The notes below the pieces were generated by a model. That model ran no database searches. It worked only from the letters and a program-made list of their open reading frames with translations, and had not been told where the DNA came from. Source: Aureimonas pseudogalii (GTDB lineage: Bacteria; Pseudomonadota; Alphaproteobacteria; Rhizobiales; Rhizobiaceae). Taken from it: DNA of 64,000 bases. Location: contig NZ_JACIEK010000001.1 of assembly GCF_014196835.1 (NCBI RefSeq), forward strand, positions 1,128,283 to 1,192,282, given 5' to 3'. The position numbers were made by a program, and so were the translations under genes. How positions within the stretch are numbered: position 1 is the first letter of the stretch; every line of letters begins with the position of its first letter. Positions 37,811-40,162 of the stretch are shown here, piece by piece.

Positions 37811-38650
37811 TCAGGGCTTGGCCGTACCGGCCTGCACCTTCGGCCGGCTGCCGAGCATCTTCCAGTTCTTGTAGAAGAGCGCCTTCATCTGGTCGGCGAT
37901 GGCCGAGACGCCGGCGAGAAGCAGCGAGAGGAAGCCCGGCACGGGGCTCGGGCGGATGACGTCCATGAAGACGTTGTAGCGACGGGCGTCCACCTCGTTC
38001 ACAGAGCGATGGAACAGCGTGTCGTCGAAGATGTAGAGCGGATCGTCGCGCCAGAGATGGCGCGCCCCGTTGCATTCGATGAAGACGCGGTCGCTGTCGG
38101 CGGGCTTGAGGTTGAGGAGCACCCGCAACGTCAGGCGCAGCGGCCCGTAGTGCCAGGTCGTCGATTCCTTGCCCGAGAAGACCGAGACGGCGATCGTCTT
38201 CACATAGCGGAAGTCGCGGTTGAACTCCGGCACGGTGTCGAGATGGCGCTTGCCGTACCAGCGATAGACATACATGCCGCGGCGCCCGTCGTGGAACTCG
38301 GCGTCGATCTCGCGGGTGATCTCGTCGCGCCGGGTGCGGAACGTGTTCAACACGGCGTCGATCTCCTCCTGCCATTCCGGTGGGAAGTCGGACAGGCGAT
38401 AGACCCCGGGACTGCGGCGGCTGAGACCGTCGACGAGGAGGTTGAAGGGCGACAGGAGCCAGGTCGGAATGCCGTTGCCCATGAAGTAGCGCTGCAGCAT
38501 CAGGCCAGTCTTGGCCTTGTTGCGCGAGACGTCGATCGCCCCGGCGATCAGCCAGATCAACGTCAGGATCGGCAGAAACCAAAGAAGCAGGGCGAGAAGT
38601 GGCAAGGCGATGGCGAAGCGGCGGAACGCCTTCTTCTGCGAGCGGGTCAT
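37811..38650 (-). CDS. aspartyl/asparaginyl beta-hydroxylase (LpxO-like)
   Basis: This is a 279-residue Fe(II)/2-oxoglutarate dioxygenase of the aspartyl/asparaginyl hydroxylase family with an N-terminal membrane helix (residues about 11-38). The first iron histidine lies in TTWHYGPLRLTLRVLLNL and the second in FDDTLFHRSVNE. The membrane anchor and size fit LpxO, which hydroxylates lipid A acyl chains, but family members vary and I do not assign the symbol. It is transcribed toward paoABC, about 150 bp away. Confidence 0.82.
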   Translation of the reverse strand: MTRSQKKAFRRFAIALPLLALLLWFLPILTLIWLIAGAIDVSRNKAKTGLMLQRYFMGNGIPTWLLSPFNLLVDGLSRRSPGVYRLSDFPPEWQEEIDAVLNTFRTRRDEITREIDAEFHDGRRGMYVYRWYGKRHLDTVPEFNRDFRYVKTIAVSVFSGKESTTWHYGPLRLTLRVLLNLKPADSDRVFIECNGARHLWRDDPLYIFDDTLFHRSVNEVDARRYNVFMDVIRPSPVPGFLSLLLAGVSAIADQMKALFYKNWKMLGSRPKVQAGTAKP

Positions 38651-38852
38651 GAGCGGGTCCGGAAGTCAGGAACGAATTCGCCGATAACGGACATGTGATC
38701 GCGTCGAACGCAAGGCAGGCGACGCGATGTCCTGCATGATCGATGCGTCGCCGTGGCAAGACTGCACGGTTCCACGGCGCTTCCACCCGCGACGGACGCC
38801 GATGACAGGATCTCCGCTTGGGCGAACGATGCGCCAAGCTCCTGCGAAAAAA

Positions 38853-39148
38853 TGGTGTCTGCGGCGGGATTCGAACCCACGACCCCAGGATTCATACCAC
38901 TTCGACTTTCGCCGCCGCCTTGCGGGCGTTCGTGGTCTGGACTGTCCCTTCACCCTAGACCGAAGCCCGTAGGTGCTGCCCTACCAGTCTCTACACCTTC
39001 CGGCAGTGCCGGCTTGGCTCGGGATCCGCATCGGCGCGAGTTGCGCGAAGCCTTCCCCGAATTTGAGCAGATCCGATGCGGACTTTCGAACCGCACCGCC
39101 CAATTTGCATCAGGAATCCTGTGCTCTATCCTGCTGAGCTACGCAGAC
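38853..39148 (-). tRNA. tRNA-Arg(CCU), interrupted by a group I intron
   Basis: The 5' exon is 39148-39112 (37 nt, ending in the anticodon CCU) and the 3' exon is 38892-38853 (40 nt, including an encoded CCA). Joined, they give a 77-nt cloverleaf: acceptor GTCTGCG/CGCAGAC, D stem GCTC/GAGC, anticodon stem CAGGA/TCCTG with loop TTCCTAA, and T arm GTGGG-TTCGAAT-CCCGC. Six T residues (complement of 38847-38852) directly follow CCA. Every stem pairs, with one G-T pair in the T stem. The intron sits directly after anticodon position 36. Splicing is needed to make a working tRNA, which reads AGG codons. Confidence 0.97.
38893..39111 (-). ncRNA. group I self-splicing intron (IC3-like) in tRNA-Arg(CCU)
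   Basis: This 219-nt intron follows a U (39112) and ends in G (38893), as group I introns must. P1 is visible: exon CCU plus intron GAU, a GCAA loop, and AUUGGG (39114-39099), with the U-G wobble at the splice site. The catalytic core closely resembles the tRNA introns of Azoarcus and Agrobacterium: GAGCCAAGCC (39020-39011), AAGGTGTAGAGACT (38999-38986), GGTGAAGGGACAGTCC (38954-38939) and GGCGAAAGTC near the 3' end. There is no room for a homing endonuclease. The size lies between the Azoarcus and Agrobacterium introns. Confidence 0.96.
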
Positions 39149-39231
39149 ATGCGGCCACTCGGCGCCCGAAAGGCCGGAGCGTCCACGCTTGTTGGTAGGA
39201 CATCTCGGCCACCGAGACAAGCGCCCGGCCC

Positions 39232-39870
39232 TCACCGAACCGCCGGGTCGGCCTGCAACAGGAGCACCGCGCGCCCGCTCGCGAGGGTCACCGTCACCGG
39301 TCCGGTCGCCTCGTTCGACTGCGTGAGGATGGACGAGAAGGGCAGCGCGACGCCGTCGAGCGGGAAGCGAGCGCCCTCGATCGACAGGCCGGCGAGATCG
39401 GAAAACTTGAGGAGCGAGAACTGGGCACCGGGCGCGGCGTCGAATCGGTGCGGGAAGCCGTCGGCGGTAAGCGGCCAAGCCCGTTCGCGCCCGTCGAAAA
39501 GCTCGATCTCGCGCCCCGCCTCGGCTTCGCGCAGCGCCACGACGAGATGCGAGAAGGCGTGGTCGCTGCGCCCGCCGAAGGCACCGACGAGAAGGATCGA
39601 CGTGGCGCCGCGCTCGACCGCGGCGGCGATCGCGAGTTCCCCATCCGTCTCGGCCTTGTCGCGCGGCAGGACCTGCCGGGCAATGCCGGCCCCAACGGCG
39701 GCATCGGGCTCGGAATCGAAATCGCCGACCCAGAGCTCGGGCCGAAGCCCGAGCGCTGCGGCATGGCGAATGCCGGCATCGGCCGCCACGACGCGCGTTC
39801 CCGCCACGGTGGCTCGAAGCGCCGGCGTCGGATGGATAGGGCCGGCGAGGAGACAGGTGAAACGCGCCAT
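39232..39870 (-). CDS. thiN: thiamine diphosphokinase
   Basis: The 212-residue enzyme converts thiamine to thiamine diphosphate using ATP. Features are the VAADAGIRHAAALGLRPELWVGDFDS block (about 28-53), the DKAETDGELAI active-site motif (about 71-81), and GAFGGRSDHAFSHL (about 97-110). All acidic metal and nucleotide ligands typical of the family are present. It lies just upstream of the tRNA-Arg gene on the same strand, so the tRNA could be read through from it. Confidence 0.9.
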   Translation of the reverse strand: MARFTCLLAGPIHPTPALRATVAGTRVVAADAGIRHAAALGLRPELWVGDFDSEPDAAVGAGIARQVLPRDKAETDGELAIAAAVERGATSILLVGAFGGRSDHAFSHLVVALREAEAGREIELFDGRERAWPLTADGFPHRFDAAPGAQFSLLKFSDLAGLSIEGARFPLDGVALPFSSILTQSNEATGPVTVTLASGRAVLLLQADPAVR

Positions 39871-40162
39871 GGCCTCCCGTCTATCCCGTCCGGCGCCCCG
39901 GCGGCAATCGCGGGCGCCGGCCCTTCCGTTCGCGGGGGGATCCGCTCTCGCCGAGCGGCCCGGCACCGATCGTCCATCCCATCTGGCGAACCCCAATTTG
40001 GCCGGTTTCGGCCCGCATGGAAAAGCGGTCGCGAGACGCTGCCGAGAGTTTCGAAAAGCCTGTTGCTCGCCAACCCTTTCGTGCGCATCTCTTCTGCGGG
40101 TACACCATCGGTTCGGCGGCCCGATGCGCAGCGGCCGCGCGATCACAGGAGACGAATCGAGC

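What the first reader, a model, noticed from the sequence alone, without database searches (positions are those of the whole stretch)
38853..39148. tRNA-Arg(CCU) split by a 219-nt group I intron
Seen: two exons that join into a perfect 77-nt cloverleaf, an intron starting after U and ending in G at the anticodon, a P1 hairpin with the U-G wobble, and core segments that read like the Azoarcus/Agrobacterium tRNA introns. Known: such introns occur in tRNA-Arg(CCU) of some alphaproteobacteria and tRNA-Ile(CAU) of Azoarcus. This is a compact version with no endonuclease. Annotation pipelines may miss the tRNA because of the interruption.
Basis: partly seen in the sequence, partly recalled or inferred. 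Interest (0 to 1): 0.75.

Follow-up and report, generated by a model that had tools for sequence, protein, structure and literature searches.

The report
tRNA-Arg gene split by self-splicing intron
This bacterium's only detected gene for one arginine transfer RNA is interrupted by a small RNA that should cut itself out; such introns are long known in related bacteria, but standard gene finders still overlook them.

Summary
On the minus strand, 39148-39112 and 38892-38853 are the exons of a 77-nt tRNA-Arg(CCU), split after U36 by a 219-nt intron (39111-38893) ending in G. A covariance model built from 14 introns of other taxa, without congeners, finds it at 133.7 bits, E 3.4e-36. A group I structure with P7 and P10 keeps 97.6% of pair cells over 21 sequences; 29 of 61 pairs change on both sides. 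It is the only Arg(CCU) gene among 44 tRNAs called in the genome. Default ARAGORN and Rfam at gathering scores miss it; Rfam's Intron_gpI missed 13 of 13 interrupted Arg(CCU) loci given. It belongs to the known alphaproteobacterial tRNA-Arg(CCU) intron family, a member of which self-splices (PMC7717549, passages). Less expected: 5 of 21 congeners carry it, not as a clade, and at the same locus sister species hold intronless genes with different exons; in one sister pair DNA homology breaks just outside the gene on both sides. Whole genes seem to be exchanged. New member of a known kind.

The parts
39112..39148 (-). 5' exon of tRNA-Arg(CCU), 37 nt, ends with anticodon CCU
   Evidence: ARAGORN intron mode and joined exons
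38893..39111 (-). group I intron (IC3-like), 219 nt, ends in G
38853..38892 (-). 3' exon of tRNA-Arg(CCU), 40 nt, starts at A37, CCA encoded
39099..39101 (-). internal guide GGG pairing with anticodon CCU (39114-39112) = P1 with U.G
   Evidence: same in 21 of 21 sequences
39102..39104 (-). AUU pairing with 3' exon AAU (38892-38890) = P10
   Evidence: 92.1% of cells paired
39074..39098 (-). P2 hairpin with GAAA loop
   Evidence: 9 of 9 pairs change on both sides among the 21 sequences
39065..39070 (-). P3 5' strand, pairs with 38981-38976
39019..39060 (-). P4-P5 (P4 39060-39055 with 39024-39019; P5 39051-39050 with 39029-39028)
38995..39018 (-). P6 and P6a
38985..38989 (-). P7 5' strand (guanosine-site helix by homology), pairs with 38944-38940, crossing P3
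   Evidence: 100% paired in 21 sequences, one pair exchanged G-C/A-U/U-A
38951..38975 (-). P8 with UUCG loop
38896..38936 (-). P9 with two inner hairpins P9a, P9b (GAAA loop)
39235..39951 (-). thiamin pyrophosphokinase gene (thiN) directly upstream; marks the conserved locus
   Evidence: PF04263 E 5.5e-16
37811..38650 (-). aspartyl/asparaginyl beta-hydroxylase-like gene downstream; no tblastn match in the 20 relatives' stretches compared
   Evidence: PF05118 E 3.1e-11

Best explanation
[quoted passage not shown] After transcription the intron folds; its guide 5'-AUUGGG-3' holds the end of the 5' exon (CCU, P1) and the start of the 3' exon (AAU, P10); a free guanosine attacks after U36, the exon's 3'-OH then attacks after the terminal G, and the joined exons give a normal tRNA. 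Fold and pairings are shown by comparison; the two chemical steps are inferred from experimentally studied family members. The intron has no protein of its own. The gene with its intron appears to move as a unit and to replace the intronless tRNA-Arg(CCU) at the thiN locus in some species (inferred).
For: Exact tRNA split. Model from other taxa: 133.7 bits, E 3.4e-36. 61-pair structure: 97.6% of cells paired, 29 pairs and 119 cells with changes on both sides, 0 of 500 shuffles as high, slid versions 28.6-42.7% paired. P7 100% paired. Only Arg(CCU) gene among 44 called tRNAs, one intron copy. [quoted passage not shown] 5 of 21 congeners interrupted, 16 of 21 intact; thiN adjacent in 4 of 5 interrupted and 15 of 16 intact; exons differ at 18 of 77 positions from sister species G001 but 1 of 77 from an Acetobacter MAG's interrupted gene. 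G020 (interrupted) against its sister G009 (intact): 86.6% identity up to 79 and 42 nt before the gene, resuming 2877 and 150 nt after its start.
Against: No splicing experiment. Rfam RF00028 gives no hit. The predicted minimum-energy fold keeps only 12 of 50 nested native pairs, the lowest share of the 21 (native-constrained -87.4 against -92.1 kcal/mol), so it may need help to fold. At 39027 it has G where 19 of 21 sequences have C. The structure was read from this sequence and the consensus, which favours it in the slide control, and the shuffles ignore relatedness. P1 never varies, so covariation says nothing for it.
Confidence: 0.96

Rival explanations
1. A dead intron: the gene no longer splices and AGG is read by tRNA-Arg(UCU), which the genome has.
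For: tRNA-Arg(UCU) is present and could read AGG by wobble (general knowledge); one nearly invariant base is changed and the MFE fold is mostly non-native.
Against: Every helix of the core forms in this sequence, the exons give a flawless cloverleaf, and four congeners hold genes 89-91% identical to it, which would be odd for a dead gene.
Confidence: 0.03
2. The intron was inserted into, or lost from, a resident tRNA gene in place (for example by reverse splicing), without exchange of exons.
For: Group I introns can reverse-splice (recalled); the family also sits in a tRNA-Leu(UAA)-like gene in congener G014, so the intron does change sites.
Against: At the same thiN locus sister species differ in exons, acceptor and T stem included: 18 of 77 (G001) and 13 of 77 (G009) against G000; homology breaks outside the gene, not at the intron ends.
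Confidence: 0.12
3. Chance resemblance, no intron.
For: No Rfam hit at gathering score; tRNA model only 16.8 bits on the 5' half.
Against: E 3.4e-36 with a model from other taxa; covariation.
Confidence: 0.005

Closest known systems
Agrobacterium tumefaciens tRNA-Arg(CCU) group I intron (Reinhold-Hurek and Shub 1992, seen only as a reference) and alphaproteobacterial relatives (Paquin et al. 1999, title seen as a reference; paper not held)
   Same: Same tRNA, same position after U36, same core; the A. tumefaciens MEJ076 locus L108 aligns throughout.
   Different: 219 nt here against 223 in L108; peripheral loops differ; exons differ at 11 of 77 positions.
Bartonella bacilliformis BbgpI (PMC7717549, abstract and passages)
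   Same: Group I intron in an unannotated tRNA-Arg(CCU) gene, recognised by tRNAscan-SE only with the intron removed; shown to splice.
   Different: Sequence not compared here; this one has no experiment.
Azoarcus tRNA-Ile intron (crystal structures mentioned in PMC3984707, passages)
   Same: Small tRNA intron with a short P1 on the anticodon and GAAA loops in P2 and P9 (Azoarcus details recalled).
   Different: Other tRNA; here P9 holds two inner hairpins.

Membership tests
group I intron | P1 with U.G at the 5' splice site | tested here: met
   U.G plus two C-G pairs, same in 21 of 21 sequences
group I intron | P3/P7 pseudoknot with P4, P5, P6, P8 | tested here: met
   all pairs standard in this sequence; P3 and P7 100% paired in 21
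group I intron | terminal G (omega-G) and P10 | tested here: met
   intron ends in G; 3 P10 pairs; P10 92.1% of cells in 21
group I intron | guanosine-started self-splicing | not testable with these tools
   needs in-vitro transcription; self-splicing shown for BbgpI by others (PMC7717549)
Rfam RF00028 Intron_gpI | score above the curated 50 bits | tested here: not met
   no hit at E <= 10; but the model also missed 13 of 13 interrupted Arg(CCU) loci and 14 of the 18 loci, so it does not judge this family
alphaproteobacterial tRNA-Arg(CCU) intron family | same tRNA, same site, homologous core | tested here: met
   21-sequence alignment; R1 without congeners, E 3.4e-36
subgroup IC3 | subgroup peripheral features | tested here: inconclusive
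   assigned by resemblance to Azoarcus and Agrobacterium introns; subgroup criteria recalled, no subgroup model at hand

The most novel reading that the evidence does not exclude
tRNA-Arg(CCU) at the thiN locus is a swapped gene: intron-bearing and intronless alleles with different exons replace one another as whole genes, with some flanking DNA, between species, carried by elements that integrate at this tRNA; the intron rides along without an endonuclease. The same intron family sits in tRNA genes on viral contigs and on plasmids, which could be the vehicles.
Probability: 0.4. Interest if true: 0.55.

Novelty: new member of a known kind. Interest (0 to 1): 0.35.

Why it matters
An apparently missing tRNA-Arg(CCU) in this genome is an annotation artefact, and likely in others too: the tRNAscan-SE authors say the program was not designed to detect such genes (PMC8450103, passages), and Rfam's group I model missed every interrupted Arg(CCU) locus I gave it (13 of 13). 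The contrast between sister species at one locus makes the old question of how endonuclease-free tRNA introns move directly testable.

Tried and rejected
Idea that the intron shields the tRNA from integrating elements. I scanned one or two long downstream ORFs for 14 of the 16 intact congeners (not G015, contig end, nor G017): 5 of 14 have an integrase reading towards the tRNA and ending close to it (G001, G016, G019 by PHROGs, without a Pfam hit; G006, G018 by Pfam). Of the interrupted congeners 4 of 5 were scanned (G000, G002, G010, G020) and none has that arrangement, though G010 has an Integrase_2 ORF about 0.7 kb away; G008 was not scanned but shares G010's downstream 5 kb. Too few, and other ORFs were not scanned: not supported.

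Clustering on the rpoB tree: 4 Fitch changes among 21 tips with 5 carriers; 643 of 2000 label shuffles need 4 or fewer, so no phylogenetic clustering is shown. One gene tree only.

The best DNA matches of 39200-64000 among plasmid records (71 records) are rhizobial replicons, so an alphaproteobacterium of the rhizobial order is inferred; genus not known.

One search used a wrong search expression and found one gene; one search repeated it correctly. ARAGORN labels such as His(atg), Phe(gaa), Ser, Tyr(ata) look in part like mis-split Arg(CCU) or Leu(UAA) genes; the counts are given as printed.

Full report
What is there. The minus strand of 38853-39148 holds a tRNA-Arg(CCU) gene in two pieces. 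ARAGORN with introns allowed reads tRNA-Arg (cct) with a 219-nt intron starting at nucleotide 38, and reads the joined 77 nt as a complete cloverleaf with encoded CCA. Without that option it finds no tRNA in the whole window. Rfam at gathering scores finds nothing in the window; with a lax threshold on 38700-39300 it shows the tRNA model at 16.8 bits on the 5' half (gathering 29) and the tmRNA model at 16.4 bits on the 3' half (gathering 47), and no group I model.

Is it a group I intron. I aligned it with 20 other interrupted tRNA-Arg(CCU) genes: 3 of the genus and 1 of another genus of the family, and 16 from the named genome scan (the fifth genus member, G008, is cut by a contig end and was left out). 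A structure of 61 pairs with P1-P10, including the P3/P7 pseudoknot, forms entirely in the window sequence. Over the 21 sequences 97.6% of cells pair, 29 pairs change on both sides, and none of 500 shuffles reaches any of the five measures; sliding the partners drops pairing to 28.6-42.7%. The structure was read from this sequence and the consensus, so the slide control favours it, and the shuffles do not keep relatedness. P1 never varies. A model of the core built from 14 of the 16 scan sequences (L087 and L133 also left out), all from other named taxa (titles, and for L154, L155, L166, L172; L166 only to class), hits the window at 133.7 bits, E 3.4e-36; the runner-up has 9.2 bits.

Why Rfam is silent. 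RF00028 gave no hit in the host genome up to E 10, none in the 8 loci L031-L038 that hold such introns, and hits in 4 of 18 scan loci: L064 and L103 (tRNAs labelled Met(CAU) in Polynucleobacter and a Neisseriaceae strain) and the cyanobacterial L081 and L134. Of 13 interrupted Arg(CCU) loci given (6, one cut by a contig end; 7) it found 0, among them Agrobacterium tumefaciens MEJ076.

Only copy. The tRNA model finds 44 places in the host genome; ARAGORN on those 44 gives Arg ACG, CCG and UCU but no CCU, and the gene query finds no second 5' half. No tRNA-Ile(GAU) or tRNA-Ala(UGC) was seen either, so the assembly may lack ribosomal operons. R1 finds one intron in the host genome; 8 of the 41 genomes of that search (host included) have one.

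How it is spread. Of the 21 held genomes of the genus 5 carry the interrupted gene (G000, G002, G008, G010, G020; G008 cut by a contig end) and 16 an intact one. G014, intact at Arg, has the intron family in a tRNA-Leu-like gene. On an rpoB tree the carriers are no clade: G000 is sister to intact G001 and G020 to intact G009 (both 100% bootstrap), and intact G015 lies among G002, G010 and G008. At least 4 changes are needed; random labels often need as few (643 of 2000). The gene lies next to thiN in 4 of 5 carriers (in G008 tRNA and thiN both lie at contig ends) and in 15 of 16 intact genomes, G003 being the exception. Yet the exons differ: 18 of 77 positions between G000 and G001, against 1 of 77 to the interrupted gene of an Acetobacter MAG and 4 of 77 to that of Rhodobacter sp. 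SW2. Of the 21 interrupted genes aligned, 19 have the acceptor type GUCNNCG (not L110, L166).

Breakpoints. Between G020 (interrupted) and its sister G009 (intact) DNA is 86.6% identical over 5.9 kb up to 79 and 42 nt before the gene; the gene itself matches only over 31 nt of the 5' exon; homology resumes, 86.8% over 1.65 kb, 2877 nt after the gene start in G020 and 150 nt in G009. So G020 has a foreign-looking stretch of about 3 kb that includes the whole interrupted gene. Between G000 and G001 only thiN (up to 84 and 73 nt before the gene) and 33 nt of the tRNA match; between carriers G010 and G000 the gene with its intron matches as one 305-nt block (90.5%) but not the DNA between it and thiN. 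I conclude that whole genes, exons with intron, have been exchanged at this locus; direction, donor and mechanism are not shown. DNA 3' of the tRNA is unrelated between most pairs of 18 loci and starts with an integrase in 5 of 14 intact loci scanned, so this tRNA is a likely integration site.

The order. In 297 genomes drawn from the order, 38 match the query at E <= 1e-9: 8 matches span the whole gene, 1 (G178) is an intact gene, the rest cover part of the intron; 29 of these loci were classified and include, besides Arg(CCU), genes labelled Leu(UAA) and Thr(GGU) and some likely mis-split labels. An intact gene with the GUCNNCG exon type was found in 5 of 297, in one genus, against 86 of 297 for a wider intact pattern; that pattern is strict and misses known intact genes (G036, G039).

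What is known. PMC7717549 (abstract and passages) characterises the same family in Bartonella bacilliformis, reports splicing in vivo and self-splicing in vitro, says the gene was unannotated, and traces the family to Agrobacterium (1992) and to a 1999 paper on sporadic distribution and horizontal transmission among alpha-purple bacteria (not held). [quoted passage not shown] PMC4033280 and PMC3984707 (passages) review bacterial tRNA introns. The finding is a new member of a known kind. I cannot exclude that whole-gene exchange at this locus has been described: a 2002 title on recombination of an entire tRNA-Leu locus stands in a reference list, and I could not read the 1999 paper.

Breadth.

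Noticed in passing
L425 2925-3223 (pCTX-M3, NC_004464.2, about 61.8-62.1 kb); also L426, L427: A tRNA with the same kind of group I intron, which I read as tRNA-Leu(UAA) (ARAGORN prints Stop(tta) with a slightly shifted split), lies unannotated as a tRNA near aac(3)-II genes in the three plasmid records looked at. At least 80% of it is in 1257 of 72,556 plasmid records and 624 of 5,426 complete E. coli genomes. It is 95% identical to Enterovirga aerilata L159 and to a Bradyrhizobiaceae MAG L073, 93% to a Novosphingobium MAG L080, hinting at an alphaproteobacterial source of this region. One literature search (10 of 95 listed) showed no paper on it.
   Followed up: partly
In L344 25 intact tRNAs lie around it. 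A 2014 review says all phage introns observed to date were in protein-coding genes (PMC3984707, passage); searches (listings only) showed no clear report of phage tRNA introns.
   Followed up: partly
L309, L342, L377: Interrupted tRNA-Arg(CCU) genes on three IMG/VR records (L377 is labelled His by ARAGORN); whether they are viral or host flank of a provirus was not settled.
   Followed up: no
L261, L262, L264, L265, L266, L269, L270, L273; L072, L148: Genes labelled tRNA-Thr(GGU) are interrupted by the same intron family; 7 of the 8 found in the order lie in one genus.
   Followed up: no
L114, L115: Microbacterium (L114) and Tsukamurella (L115) tRNAs labelled Asn(GUU) interrupted by the same kind of intron.
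   Followed up: no
L292 125-222 (G000 contig C17 near 11.6 kb): An odd 98-nt tRNA-like gene with a four-base anticodon call (gctc), 29.3 bits with the tRNA model, in the host genome.
   Followed up: no
G009, L044: G009 has a third type of intact tRNA-Arg(CCU) (GTCCCGG acceptor) at the same thiN locus.
   Followed up: partly
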